Shown: positions 6,532 through 13,329 of the stretch, piece after piece
Layout: the number at the start of each line of letters is the position of its first letter
Position numbering within the stretch: position 1 is the stretch's first letter
DNA from: Candidatus Baltobacteraceae bacterium
Lineage (GTDB): Bacteria; Vulcanimicrobiota; Vulcanimicrobiia; Vulcanimicrobiales; Vulcanimicrobiaceae
Assembly (NCBI GenBank): GCA_036559195.1
Contig: DATBTN010000014.1
Location: 1-33,186 of the forward strand
Reading direction: 5' to 3'
Length of the DNA stretch: 33,186 nucleotides
Position numbers and translations under genes: made by a program
Notes under the pieces: model-generated
What the model was told of the DNA's origin: nothing
What the model saw: the letters and a program-made list of their open reading frames with translations, nothing else
Databases searched by the model: none

Positions 6532-7493
6532 AGCGTAGCGCCCGCGCGTTCGACGAACGTGCGGGCCTCTTCATCCCAACGCCAGTGGTGCGTCGTTTCG
6601 AGATGCATGCCGCCGATATAGCGCTCGAGCGGTTGGAATTCGAGCCAGTCCGCGTCACCCGCGAGCACGCGCCGGCCGAGGACCGTGGGCACGTAGCCGT
6701 CTTCGAGTTGAGCGACGAGCGGTGCCGGATCCGCGCGAAGCTCGGCGAGCTTCTTCAAGCAGGCCGCCTCGCCTAGGAACGCCGCATCTTCGCGCCCCTG
6801 CGAGCGTTTGAACACTTCGTCGTCATCGCGCGCGCCCTGCGCGACGGCTTCGAGGATTTGCCGCTGGGTGCGTGAGAGGCCGTTCTCGACTGCGGGAAAC
6901 TCTTCGCAAAGCCGTTGCAGCCCGGATTGCATGAACGGCAATCCGGGGTAGGTTTCGTCACACGCCGCGCGAAGCGCCGCCGGATCCGAACCGGTAAACG
7001 CGAGCCACGCACGGTGCGCTCCGGCCGCGACGGCGGACGTCAGCGAACGTCGTTTCGGCAGCAGCGCGAGCGCCTCGTCGGTCGTTAGCGTTCCGAGATA
7101 GTGTTCGGAGTTGATGAGCTGCACGGTTCCGGCTCCAAGGCCCATCTCGCGCACGACCGAGAGAATCTGTAAGAGTTGCAGTTGATCGTAGAGATCGTGT
7201 TCGAACCACAGCACGACTTCGTCGAACTCGGCGGCTTTTCGCATCGCGGCGTCTCGCCGCTCGAATTCGCGGTTGATTCGAATCGCGTTGCCGTAGCCTT
7301 CGTGCGCCAAGAACGACGCGCGAATAACCGACATCGCTTCGAGGGGACGATCCCCGAGCACCGGACCATCGTGCAGCATATCGCGCCACGCCACGTGGGT
7401 TCCGAGTAACCCGGCCTTCTTCCACAGGTACAACGCCGAGTCGCCGTTCGTGATATGAAGCGTCTTCGAATTCACTTCGCGCGTCTTTGCCAC
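6528..7493 (-). CDS. DUF1835 domain-containing protein
   Basis: A 321-residue soluble protein. The N-terminus [19 protein letters not shown] and the later [19 protein letters not shown] match the DUF1835 family pattern, whose biochemical role is not established. The middle and C-terminal parts hold helices ([18 protein letters not shown], resembling a winged-helix-like segment) and end in [13 protein letters not shown]. The GTG start at 7493 has no clear Shine-Dalgarno; a slightly later start cannot be excluded. Stops of this and the H1-like gene overlap (TAA/TAG sharing bases 6529-6530). It lies immediately downstream of the tRNA-Gln/repeat region. Confidence 0.82.
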
Positions 7494-7528
7494 AAACGAA
7501 GATTAGTCATGGTGCGAGAGCCGAACCA

Positions 7529-7588
7529 CGTCCTTCGACAGGCTCCGTCCTTCGACAGGCTCCGTCCTTCGACAAGCTCAGGATGACA
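7529..7588 (-). repeat. Dispersed repeat, copy 1 (three 17-nt units plus a 9-nt cap)
   Basis: Three tandem near-identical 17-nt units (cgtccttcgacaggctc, at 7529, 7546 and 7563; the third has one change) are followed by aggatgaca. The same element occurs inverted at 20651-20705. It lies between the tRNA-Gln 3' end and the DUF1835 gene. The core CCTTCGACAAGCTCAGGATGA is familiar as an intergenic dispersed repeat in several GC-rich bacteria (from memory, not searched). Confidence 0.75.
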
Positions 7589-7599
7589 AAGGGGGAATA

Positions 7600-7671
7600 C
7601 TGGGGTGGCTGGATTCGAACCAACGAATGGCGGATTCAAAGCCCGCTGCCTTACCGCTTGGCGACACCCCA
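7600..7671 (-). tRNA. tRNA-Gln (anticodon TTG)
   Basis: A complete cloverleaf on the minus strand. The acceptor stem TGGGGTG pairs perfectly with CACCCCA. The anticodon stem GCGGG/TCCGC closes the 7-nt loop CTTTGAA, giving anticodon TTG. The T arm includes GGTTCGAATCC. The discriminator base is G, as in tRNA-Gln. The 3' CCA is not encoded. The only tRNA in the window. Confidence 0.95.
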
Positions 7672-7691
7672 ATAGTTCGCGGCGAACCTGA

Positions 7692-7925
7692 TTATCGTTT
7701 TGCGCCGACTCTCCTGTTCCACGCGGCGACGATCGGGATTTCGAAGGTTTCGCCGCGCGCGGCTCGTTTACTATACGCGACCGCGCGGACCAGCCATAAG
7801 ACGAAGAGCGCAACGTCGATGCACAGCGCGAGGGCGTAGATCGCGAGGGTCGCGGTGAGGTTTCCCAGGAGCAGCGAAGCCGCGAGCGGCCACACCAGCG
7901 CGACGAGCCAAACCAGGCTGACCAT
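7692..7925 (-). CDS. DUF4870/Tic20-like small membrane protein (N-terminus uncertain)
   Basis: From the first ATG (7925) the product is 77 aa: two hydrophobic helices and a C-terminal tail [15 protein letters not shown]. This matches the second half of DUF4870-like proteins. The frame stays open upstream to beyond 8120 and encodes the missing part, including LGYLAWPAALYERL and [14 protein letters not shown], typical of the family's first helix and conserved H-x-x-QAL region. No ATG, GTG or TTG exists in that extension near the stop of nlpC (8072), so either a rare start codon is used or a small frameshift or sequencing error is present. The natural protein is probably about 125-130 aa. It follows the NlpC/P60 gene on the same strand. 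Confidence 0.75.
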
Positions 7926-8071
7926 AAGGCCAAACCCGAGTGCTTGCCGCGTATGAAACTCGAACCAACTGGATTTGGCTTCCCGCTCTACGAGCCGTTC
8001 GTAGAGCGCCGCCGGCCAGGCGAGGTAGCCGAGCGCCGCGCGCCGTTGTTCGGCTGCGGCGCGTTCTGGAT

Positions 8072-8707
8072 CTACCGCGATGCGATCAGACGCTTCGCGC
8101 CGATGAATTTCGGTCCCCAGTACGAATCGCTCAGACTGCTGACCATAACGCCGTGACTCGAACTGGCATGAACGAAACGCCCGTGTCCGAGGTAGATGCC
8201 CACGTGGGATGGGCCGGGTTCGTAGGTCTGAAAGAACACCAAGTCGCCGGGGCGCATTCCGCCGACGGGCTTATGCCCGGCGTAGAATTGGGCGTCCGCC
8301 GTGCGTGGAATGCTCACACCCATCATGGCAAAAACGTGCTGAACGTAGCCCGAGCAGTCAAAGCCCGACGTGCTGGTCCCGCCGAAGACATACGGCGTGC
8401 CCAAAAAGCGCAACGCACTGCGGGTCAAGCTTTTAGCGATGGTGGAGGTACGAGCCAGAATCCGGCTCGCAAACTTGTTCATGTCGTGGTGGGCCGCGAT
8501 GCGGTGGTGGGCGGTCGCTCCCTCGTGGGTCTCCGACTCGGTGGCGGTCCACTGGGCCACGTCCGGGCTGATCGCCGCGGCGAACGGGAGGGAATGCTGC
8601 GAGGCGGATACGGCGTGGTGGTGATGGGTTACGGGGGAGGCGAGTGCGGCGACGCTCGTGCCGCCCAGCAGAAATGCCAACGCCCCGGTAACTAGTAGAT
8701 AACGCAA
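8072..8707 (-). CDS. Secreted NlpC/P60-family peptidoglycan endopeptidase
   Basis: A 211-residue exported wall hydrolase. A signal peptide (residues 1-24, ending AALASP) precedes a His-rich linker. The NlpC/P60 domain spans about 95-210, with Cys118 (FDCSGYVQ), His168 (PSHVGIYLG) and His180 (FVHAS) as the catalytic triad; GTPYVFGG and RPGDLVFF are family signatures. It should cleave peptide stems (D-Glu to diaminoacid bond). The start is TTG 8707, fixed by AGAGGAG 7 nt upstream. The leader holds a cyclic di-AMP riboswitch, a common arrangement for such hydrolases. The stop lies inside the open N-terminal frame of the downstream DUF4870-like gene. Confidence 0.93.
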   Translation of the reverse strand: MRYLLVTGALAFLLGGTSVAALASPVTHHHHAVSASQHSLPFAAAISPDVAQWTATESETHEGATAHHRIAAHHDMNKFASRILARTSTIAKSLTRSALRFLGTPYVFGGTSTSGFDCSGYVQHVFAMMGVSIPRTADAQFYAGHKPVGGMRPGDLVFFQTYEPGPSHVGIYLGHGRFVHASSSHGVMVSSLSDSYWGPKFIGAKRLIASR

Positions 8708-8724
8708 AAAGCTGCTCCTCTTTC

Positions 8725-8841
8725 AAACACTTGCGGGGTTAGTTGACGGGTTCGGACGTGAAAGATCGCCCTAGAGCCGACCGGCTCATTCACCCCTACC
8801 TGTATGTCCCCCGCTCCGGACGGCGCCCGGATTCAGTGATT
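8725..8841 (-). promoter_or_regulatory. ydaO/yuaA-type cyclic di-AMP riboswitch
   Basis: On the minus strand the leader of the NlpC/P60 gene contains the conserved blocks of the ydaO motif in order: CACTGAATCCGG, GCGGGGGACA, AGGTAGGGGTGAAT, a GAGCCGGTCGGCTC hairpin, TAGGGCGATC, and CCGAACCCGTCAACTAACC followed by CCGCAAGTG. The ends form P1: AATCACT (8841-8835) pairs with AGTGTTT (8731-8725) with one mismatch. The Shine-Dalgarno AGAGGAG begins only about 3 nt after P1, so ligand binding may control translation initiation. Known family members are OFF switches responding to c-di-AMP. A covariance-model hit to RF00379 would confirm it. Confidence 0.92.
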
Positions 8842-8950
8842 CCTATGGCAGGTTTAGATGCGCTGCGGTATGGGTACCGTCAGCGCTCGGTCCACCCTTT
8901 AGACCATATCGGCTATTCCCCTCCCCGAGATTAAGAGCTTTTGGGACTTT
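8842..8950 (-). promoter_or_regulatory. glmM-riboswitch spacer with strong hairpin
   Basis: Between the glmM stop and the riboswitch, bases 8886-8860 (minus) fold as GCGCTG / CGGTA / loop CCCA / TACCG / CAGCGC with one bulged A, 11 base pairs. There is no U-tract, so it is not an obvious intrinsic terminator; it could stabilise the glmM 3' end or the riboswitch leader. No clear promoter for nlpC was found, so read-through from glmM is possible. Confidence 0.5.
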
Positions 8951-10315
8951 CTAACCAGAGGCTGCCGGGGAAGTCGCAGCTGCGGCAATCTTCGCGGCCA
9001 GATCGTTCGCGAGCGCCGAAATGGTCTCGAGGTTCTCACCCTCGATCATCACGCGGATCAGCGGCTCCGTCCCCGACGGGCGGATCAGGAGCCGGCCCGT
9101 GCCCGCCAGCAGGGCCTGGGCATCTTCGACCGCGCGGCGGATCGACGGCGACTGCAGCACGTCTTTGCGCGCCGTTTTGACGTTGACGAGGATCTGCGGA
9201 TAGACCACCATCTCGGCGCAAAGTTCGTGGAGCGTTTTGCCGCTGCGAACCACCTCGCTAAAGAGCGCGATCGCGGTCATCGGGCCGTCGCCGGTCGTGT
9301 TGTTGTGCAGGTTGATGATGTGACCCGATTGCTCGCCGCCTAAAAGGTACCCGCCCGCGCGCATCTGCTCGAGAACGTATCGGTCGCCGACCGGAGCGCG
9401 CAGCAGCCGAACCCCGTAGGGCGCGAGTGCCCGCTCGAGGCCGATGTTGCTCATCACGGTGCCCACGATCGCGTCGCCCGGCAGTTCGCCGCGTGCGTGC
9501 AGCGCGCGACCGAGCACGAACATCACGTGATCCCCGTCGAGCGCCGTTCCCGTTTCGTCCACGAACATCGCCCGGTCCGCGTCGCCGTCGAACCCGACTC
9601 CCAGAACGTGTCCGTTGCCGAGCGCGGCGAGTTCGCGCACCCGGTCGCGTACCTGCGCCAGGTTGGTCGCACCGCAATCGACATTGATTCGCGCGCCGTC
9701 GTTTTCGCAATGGAGTTCGTGGACGACCGCTCCGAGTTTTTTGAGCGCGTAGGGAGCGATCGCGTAGGCCGCGCCAAACGCACCGTCGACGACGACGGTG
9801 AGCCCGTTGAGATCCGCCGCGCGCTCGTAGAGCTCGTCGTAGTAGTGTTTGGCCAGATTCTGCGCCAAACGCGCGGTTCCGATCTCCGTCCCGGTCGGGC
9901 GCGGCAGGTCGCTCGAGCCGATTAAGGACTCGATCTCGTCTTCGATTGCATCCGAGAGTTTAAAGCCGTCGGGGCCGAAAAACTTGATGCCGTTGTCGGC
10001 GATCGGATTGTGCGACGCACTGATCATCACGCCCGCCGCCGCTTGCGTGCGCACCGTAACGGTGGCCACCGCCGGCGATGGCACGATCCCGATCGAGACG
10101 ACGTCGCGCCCGACCGAGGTAATGCCCGCAACGATCGCGCCTTCGAGCATCGTTCCCGAGAGGCGCGTATCGCGCCCCAGGATGATGGGGCGATGCCGGT
10201 CGCTGGTGTGCGCGAGCACCGTCGCGCCCGCCCGTCCGATGGCGAAGGCGAGTTCGGGCGTGAGATCGGTGTTGGCGACACCGCGCACGCCATCGGTTCC
10301 AAAGATGCGGCCCAT
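8951..10315 (-). CDS. glmM: Phosphoglucosamine mutase
   Basis: A 454-residue enzyme converting glucosamine-6-phosphate to glucosamine-1-phosphate for UDP-GlcNAc and peptidoglycan synthesis. All four family landmarks are present: N-terminal FGTDGVRG, phosphoserine loop SASHNP with active Ser101, metal loop GFDGDADR, sugar-binding GGEQSGH, and C-terminal phosphate loop RPSGTEPLIRVM. ATG 10315 has AAGGA 8 nt upstream and lies 3 bp after the ybbR stop. This is the classical cdaA-cdaR-glmM cluster, in which GlmM can also bind and restrain CdaA. Full length for the family. Confidence 0.97.
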   Translation of the reverse strand: MGRIFGTDGVRGVANTDLTPELAFAIGRAGATVLAHTSDRHRPIILGRDTRLSGTMLEGAIVAGITSVGRDVVSIGIVPSPAVATVTVRTQAAAGVMISASHNPIADNGIKFFGPDGFKLSDAIEDEIESLIGSSDLPRPTGTEIGTARLAQNLAKHYYDELYERAADLNGLTVVVDGAFGAAYAIAPYALKKLGAVVHELHCENDGARINVDCGATNLAQVRDRVRELAALGNGHVLGVGFDGDADRAMFVDETGTALDGDHVMFVLGRALHARGELPGDAIVGTVMSNIGLERALAPYGVRLLRAPVGDRYVLEQMRAGGYLLGGEQSGHIINLHNNTTGDGPMTAIALFSEVVRSGKTLHELCAEMVVYPQILVNVKTARKDVLQSPSIRRAVEDAQALLAGTGRLLIRPSGTEPLIRVMIEGENLETISALANDLAAKIAAAATSPAASG

Positions 10316-10318
10316 CGT

Positions 10319-11008
10319 TTAGTCCTTCGCTCCCGTTCCACTGGTAAAGTGCGCTTCCACCCGAACGAGATCGGGCGAGACTTGCAGGCCGCTCACGTCG
10401 CGACCCAACGAGTCCACCGGCACCGGACGGATCATTTCGTCGAGCGGGGAGGCGTCGGCGGGCAGCGGGACGTCGACCCGTACGCCCGCAACTTGCGCGA
10501 GCGCGTCGGCCGCTCCGCGAACCATCGCACTCGAGGGCGTGAGGGTCACTTGGCCGCGCACGACGACGGTCGATTGCTGCTGCTCGCTATAATGTACGGC
10601 TAGCGGAACGTTCTTCTGTTCGATCTTCTCGATCGTTACCGTTACCGACGCCGGACTGAGCGACTGCAGGACGACGTTGGGCGCCACCGGCGTGACCGGT
10701 ACGGTCACCACGGTATCCGCCGCTACCGGCGCGACGGTCTTCGATAAGTCCACCACCGCTTTAATCTCGTCCGGCTTGACCTGGGCCTGCCCGCTCTGCG
10801 GCGAAATGGCGACGATCGCTTCTTTATCGGCAACGTGCGCGACGTAGCCGACCGGAACGTTGATGACCGAGATCGGGACGCTGAGCTGCTGGTCGGCGCG
10901 CGCGGCCAAGAGCGGGTTGCTCGCGTAGCGGAAATACGCCCACCCGATGATTGCGAGGGTGAGCGAGAGGACCTTAAGTGCGAAGTTCCGACGGATGATC
11001 TGTAACAT
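10319..11008 (-). CDS. cdaR: YbbR-domain regulator of diadenylate cyclase (CdaR)
   Basis: A 229-residue protein with an N-terminal transmembrane helix (about 9-27, LKVLSLTLAIIGWAYFRY) and an extracytoplasmic part containing YbbR repeats (VPISVINVPVGYVAHV, VPVTPVAPNVVLQSLSP, VPLPADASP). Bacillus CdaR has the same topology and modulates CdaA activity. ATG 11008 lies inside the 3' end of cdaA (35-bp overlap), indicating tight coupling. It is shorter than Bacillus CdaR (about 480 aa), with fewer YbbR repeats. The N-terminal motif NFALKVLSLTLAIIGW is very typical of YbbR proteins. Confidence 0.9.
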   Translation of the reverse strand: MLQIIRRNFALKVLSLTLAIIGWAYFRYASNPLLAARADQQLSVPISVINVPVGYVAHVADKEAIVAISPQSGQAQVKPDEIKAVVDLSKTVAPVAADTVVTVPVTPVAPNVVLQSLSPASVTVTIEKIEQKNVPLAVHYSEQQQSTVVVRGQVTLTPSSAMVRGAADALAQVAGVRVDVPLPADASPLDEMIRPVPVDSLGRDVSGLQVSPDLVRVEAHFTSGTGAKD

Positions 11009-11873
11009 GTTTTTCTTGCGAGCGGCGCTGTTGGGGCGTTAGGCGCGATGCGAATTGCGTCACGAGATCGTTGCCGCGCAGCCGCGGGCCCACTCGCGGA
11101 GGGCGCGTCGAAGCGAGCAGCACTTTGACCAGACGCGTCTCCTCTTCGATCGCTCGCGAGAGTTTGCCCTCGCGCGCGACCGCGATATTTCCGCTCTCTT
11201 CCGAGACGACGACGATGACGGCATCGGTCTGCTCCGCGAGTCCGAGCGCGGCGCGATGGCGGGTTCCGATGCGCCGTTCGGTCAGCGACTGCTCGGCGAG
11301 CGGCAAGAAACACCCCGCGGCCTCGATGATGTTCTCGCGCACGATGACGGCGCCGTCGTGCAGCGGCGAGCGCGGCACGAAGAGCGAGAGCAGCAGCTCG
11401 GCGGAGAGTTCGGCGTTAAGCGTCGTGCCGCTCTCGACAAACTCCTTAAGGCCGGTCGCCTGCTCGATAACGATGAGCGCGCCCAACCGGTTGCGCGAGA
11501 GCAGAAACGCCGCTTTCGCGATCATCACGATCGACTTGTCTTCGGGGCGGACGCGCTCGCGTTCGCTCGAACTTCGAAAGAACCAGCCGCGGCCGATCTG
11601 CTCGAGCGCGCGCCGCAATTCGGGTTGGAAGACGATCGGGAGCGTGACCGCCGCGCCGACCACGATCACTTGCAAGATCGAACCCAACAGCAGCAGATTC
11701 AACAGTTTGGCGATGCCGAGCAATCCGACGAGCACCAAAACGCCGGTGAGAATCTGCACGGCGCGCGTGCCGCGTATGATCAGCAGCACGTAATAAATCA
11801 ACACGCTGGTCGCAACGATATCGAGCGCGTCGGTTACGCCTAAGGTATGGAGGAGGTTATTGAGCGTCTGCAC
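10974..11873 (-). CDS. cdaA: Diadenylate cyclase CdaA (c-di-AMP synthase)
   Basis: A 299-residue membrane enzyme making cyclic di-AMP from two ATP. Three N-terminal hydrophobic helices (about 15-90) precede the DAC domain. The catalytic motif DGA (173-175, in SPLHDGAVIV) and RHR (205-207, in IGTRHRAALG) are both present, as is the characteristic IVFQPELRRALEQIGRG linker. The start is GTG 11873 with GGAGG about 12 nt upstream; the upstream unknown gene overlaps it by 17 bp. The 3' end overlaps cdaR. Together with the riboswitch upstream of nlpC about 2-3 kb away, the window encodes both source and sensor of the second messenger. Confidence 0.96.
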   Translation of the reverse strand: MQTLNNLLHTLGVTDALDIVATSVLIYYVLLIIRGTRAVQILTGVLVLVGLLGIAKLLNLLLLGSILQVIVVGAAVTLPIVFQPELRRALEQIGRGWFFRSSSERERVRPEDKSIVMIAKAAFLLSRNRLGALIVIEQATGLKEFVESGTTLNAELSAELLLSLFVPRSPLHDGAVIVRENIIEAAGCFLPLAEQSLTERRIGTRHRAALGLAEQTDAVIVVVSEESGNIAVAREGKLSRAIEEETRLVKVLLASTRPPRVGPRLRGNDLVTQFASRLTPQQRRSQEKHVTDHPSELRT

Positions 11874-12405
11874 GGGCGAGCAACGCCTCCAGAACGCGAT
11901 CGGCGGCGATCTCCGGAGCCTGTAAGCCGTCCGCGGCGATGCGGGCGGTGACGTTCAGCGGCAGCGGCGAGAGTAATTGCGTGCGGCGAGTGCCGCCGGT
12001 TCGCCGCAGTTCGATATCCAAAATCGTTGATACGAGCGCGAACGGCGTTACGCTCGGGCGTACCTCCAGAACGAGCGTGGACTCGAAGCGATCGCAACCC
12101 GCGATGCCGGCCGGCCGTCCCCGTCCGCCGAGAGCCGATTCGCAGGCGCGCAAGGCATCTACCGGCGATGGTTCAATTGCAAGAGCGATGATTGCTTCGT
12201 CGTACAGCCGGCCTCCGGGAATGCGCTCGATCAGCGCGTCGGGGTCGATGTCGTCGCCGGCTTCGAGCAGCGCGTACGTTCGCGGCAGCGAAGATGAGGG
12301 CCCGAACACGATGGCGGCGCCGGCTTCGCGCAATGCGGCGGCCAGGCCGGTACGATTCTGCTCGTCCAACGGCGCATCGACGCGAAGCGTACGGGCCCAA
12401 CCCAC
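11857..12405 (-). CDS. Uncharacterised protein heading the cdaA operon
   Basis: I do not recognise this family. It is about 182 aa, soluble, without signal or membrane segments. Start chosen at GTG 12405 because AAAGGTGA lies 8 nt upstream; ATG 12462 would add 19 residues but overlap the divergent rsgA start. The first ~80 residues include WARTLRVDAPLDEQNRTGL, AAIVFGPSSSLPR and PDALIERIPGGRLYDEAI; the rest looks like alternating strands and helices ending in EALLARADAQ. The stop overlaps the start of cdaA by 17 bp, so it is translated with the cyclase and may act on c-di-AMP, wall or folate-linked metabolism, but this is only context. Confidence 0.7.
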   Translation of the reverse strand: MGWARTLRVDAPLDEQNRTGLAAALREAGAAIVFGPSSSLPRTYALLEAGDDIDPDALIERIPGGRLYDEAIIALAIEPSPVDALRACESALGGRGRPAGIAGCDRFESTLVLEVRPSVTPFALVSTILDIELRRTGGTRRTQLLSPLPLNVTARIAADGLQAPEIAADRVLEALLARADAQ

Positions 12406-12447
12406 GATAGGCTCACCTTTAGCCGTGCGGTACGGCCACTCTTGCGA

Positions 12448-13329
12448 ATGAACGAAACTCATCGAGCGCGCGTGGTCTCGGTCGGAAAAAACGCTGCCTG
12501 GGTGGTACTCGATACCGAGAACGTCCCCCGCGTCGCGCAGCTCAAGCGCATGAGCGGCAAACGCTCGATGCTCGCGCCCGGCGACGCAGTCTTCGTGAAA
12601 CTTCTCGAAGACGACAAGGCGCTCGTCGAACGCGTAGAACCGCGAAGCTTCACGCTCGAACGCCGCACGGTCGACGGGCGGGCGAAGACCATGGCGGCCA
12701 ACGTCGATGCGATGATCACCGTCACGGCCCTTGCCGATCCTCCGCCTCGCCTCACCACGCTCGACCAGCTTCTGGCATTCGGCGAGTTGCAGAGCATCGA
12801 AGCGATCGTGATCTTCACCAAACCCGATCTGGCCGCCCAGCCCGCACGCGCCGCGCTGGCGGAGCTGTACGAAGGACTCGGCTACACCGTCACGGTCGTC
12901 AATCCGAAGAGCGGTGAAGGTATCGACGGGCTTCGCGCCTACCTGCAAGGGCGGCACGCCCTCTTGTGCGGCGTCTCCGGCGTGGGCAAGAGCTCGATCT
13001 TTCGCGCGCTGGGAGGGCAGGCCGTGGTCGGCGACCTCTCGCGGCGCGGCCTCGGCCGCCAGACTACCTCGGCTTCACGCCTCTATCGTCTCGACGACGG
13101 CTTCCTTATAGATAGCCCGGGCGTCGCGGAGTTCGGGCTGGGCGCGATCGGCGCCCAAGAACTCGTTGGGGGCTTTCGCGAGATGGCCGAGCCCGCCACG
13201 CACTGCCGCTTCACCGATTGCAGCCATTCGCACGAGCCCGACTGCGGCGTGCAGGCCGCCGTCGCCGACGGCCGAATCGCCCAGAGTCGGTATGCCAGCT
13301 TCCAGAAGATTTTGGAGACGGCAAGCTAG
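12448..13329 (+). CDS. rsgA: Ribosome small-subunit-dependent GTPase A
   Basis: A 293-residue circularly permuted GTPase that helps 30S subunit maturation. An OB fold (about 5-70) is followed by the permuted G motifs: G4-like TKPD (124-127), G1/P-loop GVSGVGKSS (175-183) and G3 DSPG (222-225). The zinc site CRFTDCSHSHEPDC shows the exact C-x4-C-x-H-x5-C spacing (Cys253, Cys258, His260, Cys266). The start is ATG 12448; TTG 12442 is possible. It is transcribed divergently from the cdaA operon and is followed by rpsT with its own promoter, consistent with a ribosome-related neighbourhood. Confidence 0.95.
   Translation: MNETHRARVVSVGKNAAWVVLDTENVPRVAQLKRMSGKRSMLAPGDAVFVKLLEDDKALVERVEPRSFTLERRTVDGRAKTMAANVDAMITVTALADPPPRLTTLDQLLAFGELQSIEAIVIFTKPDLAAQPARAALAELYEGLGYTVTVVNPKSGEGIDGLRAYLQGRHALLCGVSGVGKSSIFRALGGQAVVGDLSRRGLGRQTTSASRLYRLDDGFLIDSPGVAEFGLGAIGAQELVGGFREMAEPATHCRFTDCSHSHEPDCGVQAAVADGRIAQSRYASFQKILETAS

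What the first reader, a model, noticed from the sequence alone, without database searches (positions are those of the whole stretch)
8725..8841. c-di-AMP riboswitch controlling NlpC/P60, about 2 kb from the c-di-AMP synthase gene
The minus-strand leader contains all conserved ydaO blocks and a pairing P1, ending right before the Shine-Dalgarno. With cdaA, cdaR and glmM upstream on the same strand, messenger source and wall-hydrolase sensor are co-located. That arrangement in a secretin-bearing (diderm) organism is uncommon, since ydaO switches are best known in Gram-positives.
Basis: partly seen in the sequence, partly recalled or inferred. Interest (0 to 1): 0.65.

Follow-up and report, generated by a model that had tools for sequence, protein, structure and literature searches.

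The report
c-di-AMP riboswitch on wall-hydrolase gene
A known kind of RNA sensor for the signal molecule c-di-AMP sits between the genes that make the signal and a cell-wall-cutting enzyme in an uncultivated two-membraned bacterium; relatives show the arrangement is conserved across its class, the RNA probably shuts the enzyme off by hiding its ribosome-binding site, and lineages that lost the signal-making gene also lost the RNA.

Summary
RF00379 (c-di-AMP, ydaO/yuaA) matches the minus strand at 8848-8713, full length, 90.4 bits against a cut-off of 38. It follows cdaA-cdaR-glmM and precedes an NlpC/P60 gene. The genome belongs to Candidatus Eremiobacterota. It has one diadenylate cyclase, one c-di-AMP riboswitch and one NlpC/P60 gene, and a diderm envelope (secretin, Omp85).

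(1) The arrangement is class-wide: 99 of 149 phylum genomes have the riboswitch; 90 of 107 sites precede NlpC/P60; 72 of 92 testable sites have cdaA and glmM directly upstream. (2) The aptamer continues to 8713. A loop-to-tail pseudoknot (8765-8759 with 8725-8719) abuts the Shine-Dalgarno, and its pairing covaries between relatives. No terminator was found. The likely mechanism is a translational OFF switch. (3) The start codon is conserved UUG (84 of 90). (4) Eremiobacteraceae that lost the cyclase keep glmM-nlpC but have no riboswitch.

It is a new member of a known family. A translational c-di-AMP riboswitch on nlpC is already reported in Corynebacterium, and Solirubrobacterales share the architecture. 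The synthase linkage and the co-loss are the new parts. Ligand binding and the direction of regulation are inferred.

The parts
8713..8848 (-). c-di-AMP (ydaO/yuaA, RF00379) riboswitch aptamer, complete
   Evidence: 90.4 bits, E 3.8e-20, model 1-134; single copy in genome
8835..8838 (-). P1 5' strand (CACU)
   Evidence: pairs with 8731-8728 in the RF00379 alignment
8728..8731 (-). P1 3' strand (AGUG)
   Evidence: RF00379 alignment
8759..8765 (-). pseudoknot loop strand UCUUUCA
   Evidence: 7 Watson-Crick pairs with the tail; covaries across relatives; duplex -10.9 kcal/mol
8719..8725 (-). pseudoknot 3' strand UGAAAGA, abutting GGAG of the Shine-Dalgarno
   Evidence: the T. tengcongensis crystal construct has the same arrangement CUCCUUCG / CGAAGGAG (PMC5393176)
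8715..8720 (-). Shine-Dalgarno GAGGAG, 7 nt before the UUG start
   Evidence: sequence
8072..8707 (-). NlpC/P60 endopeptidase gene, UUG start, signal-peptide-like N-terminus
   Evidence: PF00877 114.1 bits; only NlpC/P60 in the genome
8951..10315 (-). glmM, phosphoglucosamine mutase
   Evidence: TIGR01455 525.8 bits over cut-off 447.55
10319..11008 (-). cdaR (YbbR family)
   Evidence: 6 of 7 aligned orthologues match PF07949; YbbR structures match the profile
10974..11873 (-). cdaA, diadenylate cyclase (the only DAC in the genome)
   Evidence: TIGR00159 231.9 bits, PF02457 and CdaA_N, sole DAC
8859..8888 (-). hairpin just upstream of the aptamer, no U-run; function unknown
   Evidence: stable hairpin at this place in 41 of 60 relatives against 6 of 60 in the preceding 50 nt

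Best explanation
This is a c-di-AMP riboswitch of the ydaO class placed inside, or directly behind, the cdaA-cdaR-glmM operon. It acts on translation of the nlpC gene. When c-di-AMP is low, the tail of the aptamer is free, the ribosome binds GAGGAG and starts at UUG, and the secreted endopeptidase is made. When CdaA makes c-di-AMP, two ligand molecules stabilise the aptamer, including the pseudoknot between loop UCUUUCA and tail UGAAAGA. That buries the bases next to and partly within the Shine-Dalgarno, and NlpC translation stops while cdaA, cdaR and glmM upstream are not affected. Wall opening is thus coupled negatively to the messenger made by the neighbouring operon. Shown: riboswitch class, operon order and its conservation, pseudoknot covariation, its position against the Shine-Dalgarno, no terminator found, co-loss with the cyclase. 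Inferred: ligand binding by this RNA, OFF direction, co-transcription with glmM, cleavage of peptidoglycan by this NlpC.
For: RF00379 full-length 90.4 bits. Loop-tail helix averages 6.17 bp against 5.33 +/- 0.09 with tails swapped between genomes (maximum of 500 swaps 5.61). In a MAFFT alignment of 86 distinct sequences the seven pseudoknot pairs are standard in 81.6% of cells (shuffles 75.1 +/- 0.9%, 0 of 500 as high) with 77 double changes (32 +/- 10, 0 of 500), and sliding the partner by 1-3 columns lowers both. The helix ends at GGAG in most sequences; UCUUUCA/UGAAAGA, UUCUUCC/GGAAGAA and UCUUUCUC/GAGAAAGA are alternative versions. UUG is the only Shine-Dalgarno-spaced start in 84 of 90 nlpC genes, whereas glmM starts are GTG 27, ATG 21, TTG 2. 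No terminator-like or promoter-like site in 8600-9100. Synteny 72 of 92. Cyclase-less Eremiobacteraceae keep glmM-nlpC without any RF00379 match at E<=1. Precedent: the C. glutamicum nlpC ydaO riboswitch represses translation, not transcript level (PMC9960051).
Against: No binding or expression data. In the window the pseudoknot overlaps only the first two bases of GAGGAG, so blocking would rest partly on steric hindrance. The extra-pair-type count did not exceed shuffles (12 observed, mean 14). Part of the co-occurrence of riboswitch and cyclase follows from physical linkage. One relative with a cyclase (G023) has no riboswitch found next to glmM and its nlpC lies elsewhere.
Confidence: 0.77

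Rival explanations
1. The riboswitch works on transcription: c-di-AMP binding causes RNA polymerase to stop (intrinsic, Rho-dependent or pausing) before nlpC, as in B. subtilis kimA or as proposed for Streptomyces rpfA.
For: Terminator-linked members exist in the same phylum: by reading, terminator hairpins with a U-run follow the aptamer in G058 (kdpA) and G059 (lytic transglycosylase-like). Terminated transcripts were reported in vitro for the S. coelicolor riboswitch (cited in PMC9960051).
Against: The Shine-Dalgarno begins inside the model and the start codon follows by 7 nt, so there is no room for a terminator; none is found by scan; the spacing is kept in 84 of 90 relatives.
Confidence: 0.15
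2. It is an ON switch: ligand binding frees the Shine-Dalgarno from an alternative pairing.
For: The Shine-Dalgarno strand could have other partners that were not searched exhaustively.
Against: The covarying partner of the tail is the loop of the pseudoknot itself, which is part of the ligand-bound crystal structure described in PMC5393176. The members described in PMC9960051 are OFF switches.
Confidence: 0.05
3. nlpC has its own promoter between glmM and the aptamer, so source and sensor share only genome position, not a transcript. This does not exclude the best explanation; it changes only the operon part.
For: 102 nt of intergenic sequence with a conserved hairpin position; G003, G007, G103 and G046 have about 2 kb inserted between glmM and the aptamer, and in G010, G021 and G031 the two are on separate loci, yet the riboswitch-nlpC unit is intact.
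Against: No sigma-70-type promoter found (but consensus scans may not cover this phylum); adjacency kept in 79 of 100 sites with at least 1.7 kb upstream.
Confidence: 0.4
4. The match is a decayed or chance aptamer without function.
For: None found.
Against: Score 52 bits above the gathering cut-off, conserved in 99 of 149 phylum genomes, covarying, lost together with the cyclase in near-complete relatives.
Confidence: 0.01

Closest known systems
Corynebacterium glutamicum nlpC (cg2402) ydaO/kimA-type riboswitch (PMC9960051)
   Same: Same riboswitch class, NlpC/P60 target, translational OFF action shown there, pseudoknot between CUCC and the RBS proposed there
   Different: Actinobacterium with DisA as its cyclase; here a CdaA operon directly upstream, diderm host, single NlpC/P60, conserved UUG start, covariation evidence for the pseudoknot
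B. subtilis ydaO/kimA riboswitch and T. tengcongensis crystal structure (RF00379; PMC5393176)
   Same: Same aptamer blocks, P1 and loop-tail pseudoknot (CUCCUUCG/CGAAGGAG in the crystal construct)
   Different: kimA platform is a transcription terminator; here none was found
Streptomyces rpfA c-di-AMP riboswitch (discussed in PMC9960051)
   Same: Controls a cell-wall hydrolase; no canonical terminator
   Different: Reported effect on transcript; different hydrolase family
Solirubrobacterales ydaO-nlpC leaders
   Same: CUCUUUC/GAAAGAG pseudoknot strands, start codon a few nt after GAAAGAGGA, NlpC motif protein
   Different: Linkage to cdaA-glmM was not examined there
B. subtilis cdaA-cdaR-glmM-glmS operon with glmS ribozyme (own knowledge)
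   Same: RNA-controlled last gene behind cdaA-cdaR-glmM
   Different: Ligand is glucosamine-6-phosphate and the RNA is a ribozyme

Membership tests
c-di-AMP riboswitch RF00379 | covariance-model score over the curated threshold, full length | tested here: met
   90.4 vs 38 bits, positions 1-134
c-di-AMP riboswitch RF00379 | loop-to-tail pseudoknot | tested here: met
   7 bp in the window; covariation in relatives
c-di-AMP riboswitch RF00379 | organism makes c-di-AMP | tested here: met
   one CdaA with DAC domain, by sequence only
c-di-AMP riboswitch RF00379 | binds c-di-AMP | not testable with these tools
   needs in-line probing or ITC
c-di-AMP riboswitch RF00379 | OFF regulation of the downstream gene | not testable with these tools
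   needs a reporter
translational riboswitch | Shine-Dalgarno next to or within a ligand-stabilised helix, no terminator | tested here: met
   pseudoknot abuts and overlaps GAGGAG by 2 nt; no terminator; sequestration itself is inferred
CdaA diadenylate cyclase | DAC domain with DGA and RHR motifs and N-terminal membrane domain | tested here: met
   PF02457, PF19293; DGAVIV and RHRAA read in the translation
CdaR/YbbR | YbbR repeats | tested here: inconclusive
   window copy below Pfam threshold; 6 of 7 aligned orthologues match PF07949
NlpC/P60 endopeptidase | NLPC_P60 domain with Cys-His-His | tested here: met
   PF00877 complete 1-105; DCSG, SHVG and VHAS read in the translation

The most novel reading that the evidence does not exclude
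In class Eremiobacteria the riboswitch arm of c-di-AMP signalling is, in most members, one minimal circuit in one locus: the only cyclase, the wall-precursor enzyme GlmM and the wall hydrolase are linked, and the hydrolase is gated by an aptamer whose own pseudoknot serves as the expression platform. The aptamer is discarded when the cyclase is lost.
Probability: 0.5. Interest if true: 0.6.

Novelty: new member of a known kind. Interest (0 to 1): 0.47.

Why it matters
It extends c-di-AMP riboswitch control of wall hydrolases to a diderm phylum, where c-di-AMP biology is hardly studied. It gives comparative evidence for the pseudoknot-over-Shine-Dalgarno mechanism that was only proposed for Corynebacterium. 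It also offers a natural experiment (cyclase loss with aptamer loss). A cultivated member of the phylum exists (Vulcanimicrobium alpinus, Gram-negative wall seen by microscopy, 3.50 Mb genome, PMC9758169), and G008 (3.5 Mb, one contig) may be it, so the idea can be tested.

Tried and rejected
First pseudoknot parser had a regex fault, repaired. Nelson et al. 2013 and Jones and Ferre-D'Amare 2014 are not held. 'd2' (7472-7933) was treated as a gene at first; its matches are short and fall on the tRNA-Gln, so it was dropped. Absence of RF00379 in many same-family genomes was considered as real loss and rejected for most: contigs end before the expected place (G015, G039, G053, G077, G090, G096, G101, G106, G109, G118). 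A CUGC/GCAG pairing between leader and Shine-Dalgarno seen in the window is not kept in other genera, so it was not pursued. A paper search for Eremiobacterota with c-di-AMP gave nothing.

Full report
Observation. Rfam's c-di-AMP model RF00379 matches the minus strand at 8848-8713 over its full length with 90.4 bits (cut-off 38, E 3.8e-20). It is the only match in the 2.48 Mb, 97% complete genome.

Surroundings. On the same strand, 5' to 3', lie cdaA (10974-11873), cdaR (10319-11008, overlapping cdaA), glmM (8951-10315), 102 nt, the aptamer, and nlpC (8072-8707, UUG start). CdaR is assigned by orthology: 6 of 7 aligned orthologues match YbbR, the window copy alone does not. A tRNA-Gln gene follows at 7599-7672. 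The genome has one DAC, one NlpC/P60, a DHH-DHHA1 protein that could be the phosphodiesterase, an Omp85 gene and a secretin in the window. Titles of matching contigs place the relatives in Candidatus Eremiobacterota. A cultivated member of that phylum has a typical Gram-negative wall with outer membrane (PMC9758169).

Conservation. 99 of 149 phylum genomes carry the riboswitch, mostly one copy. At 90 of 107 sites the next gene is NlpC/P60. At 72 of 92 sites with 3.3 kb or more upstream, cdaA and glmM precede it on the same strand with glmM within 700 nt. Some class members carry extra copies before other genes: PF04185 phosphoesterases, a family-4 glycosyltransferase, and a group of exported proteins without a Pfam match. 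Outside the class the aptamer is found before kdpA (Pfam), an alanine-racemase-like gene and a lytic-transglycosylase-like gene (the last two by reading).

Mechanism. The loop of the hairpin after UAGGG (UCUUUCA, 8765-8759) pairs with the tail UGAAAGA (8725-8719), which runs into GGAG (8718-8715) 7 nt before the UUG start. The same loop-tail arrangement (CUCCUUCG with CGAAGGAG) can be read in the T. tengcongensis construct solved with c-di-AMP, whose pseudoknot is described in PMC5393176. In the relatives the two strands change together. Best loop-tail helices average 6.17 bp; tails swapped between genomes give 5.33 +/- 0.09 and never more than 5.61 in 500 trials. On an alignment of 86 distinct sequences, 81.6% of pseudoknot cells are standard pairs (shuffles 75.1 +/- 0.9%) and 77 are double changes (shuffles 32 +/- 10), with 0 of 500 shuffles as high for either; slid partners do worse. 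The count of extra pair types does not exceed shuffles, and the shuffles do not correct for relatedness. Predicted duplex energies are -10.9 kcal/mol for loop-tail and -8.3 for a generic anti-Shine-Dalgarno, so the two could compete; ligand is expected to tip the balance. No terminator or promoter consensus lies in 8600-9100. UUG is the only suitably spaced start in 84 of 90 sites, against 2 TTG, 27 GTG and 21 ATG for glmM, which suggests selection for a weak start. C. glutamicum's nlpC riboswitch was shown to act at translation, and its authors proposed a pseudoknot with the RBS (PMC9960051). The covariation here supports that mechanism for this lineage.

Natural experiment. Five Eremiobacteraceae genomes (four at 96-97% completeness) have no DAC domain anywhere. 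All five have glmM without cdaA or cdaR in the fetched upstream sequence, and in four of them nlpC still follows glmM. Rfam finds no c-di-AMP aptamer in those loci even at E<=1, though it finds a neighbouring tRNA in four of them. A GlmM tree places four in one clade and leaves G042 unresolved at the base, so one or two losses. Most class genomes that have a DAC but no riboswitch match end their contig before the expected site; G023 is a real exception. Across the class the two-by-two table is 93, 12, 2, 10 (Fisher p 4e-7), but physical linkage and incomplete assemblies inflate that number. The near-complete genomes are the real evidence. The family name Eremiobacteraceae is inferred from the contig title of G044 ('Candidatus Eremiobacter'), which is in the same family.

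Comparison. The tail pattern also occurs in Thermoanaerobacter and Paenibacillus, where the gene usually starts about 100 nt or more later, and in Solirubrobacterales, where a start codon follows within about 10 nt, often for an NlpC motif protein. The architecture is therefore shared, and the object is a new member of a known family. What I did not find described is the synthase linkage in a diderm class and the co-loss; the search covered open-access papers only.

Physiology (inference). GlmM feeds UDP-GlcNAc synthesis and is reported to inhibit CdaA in B. subtilis and S. aureus (titles of PMC8573169 and PMC6368335). If that holds here, wall-precursor supply would set c-di-AMP, and c-di-AMP would in turn limit NlpC. 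That chain is untested.

Noticed in passing
window 8888-8859 (-) and the same place in relatives: A hairpin of changing sequence sits within 48 nt upstream of the aptamer: z below -1.5 in 41 of 60 glmM-linked sites against 6 of 60 in the preceding 50 nt. No U-run; it may be a decay barrier, processing site or extra aptamer helix.
   Followed up: partly
L046, L047, L048, L033, L031, L043, L055, L068, L135, L136: Second c-di-AMP riboswitches in some class members precede PF04185 phosphoesterases, a family-4 glycosyltransferase, and exported proteins of about 430-650 aa, one of which was scanned and had no Pfam match.
   Followed up: partly
L077 (G058) and L058 (G059): Outside the class the riboswitch precedes kdpA and a lytic-transglycosylase-like gene, with a hairpin and U-run after the aptamer that look like terminators, so both platforms occur in the phylum.
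   Followed up: partly
L137, L146, L155, L158, L167, L169, L193, L200, L221, L224, L228, L232, L236: Actinobacterial (mostly Solirubrobacterales, where titles were shown) contigs with the same pseudoknot tail and a start codon within about 13 nt, followed by proteins with an NlpC motif.
   Followed up: partly
G023 (L290): cdaA-cdaR-glmM present but nlpC lies on other contigs and no RF00379 match was found.
   Followed up: partly
window 7599-7672 (-): A tRNA-Gln gene follows nlpC; a tRNA is also found in the nlpC loci of the cyclase-less genomes, and short matches at that place occur in many relatives.
   Followed up: no
window 11857-12957 (-): ORF overlapping the cdaA start, conserved upstream of cdaA in many relatives (26-45% identity), no Pfam or NCBIfam match.
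   Followed up: no
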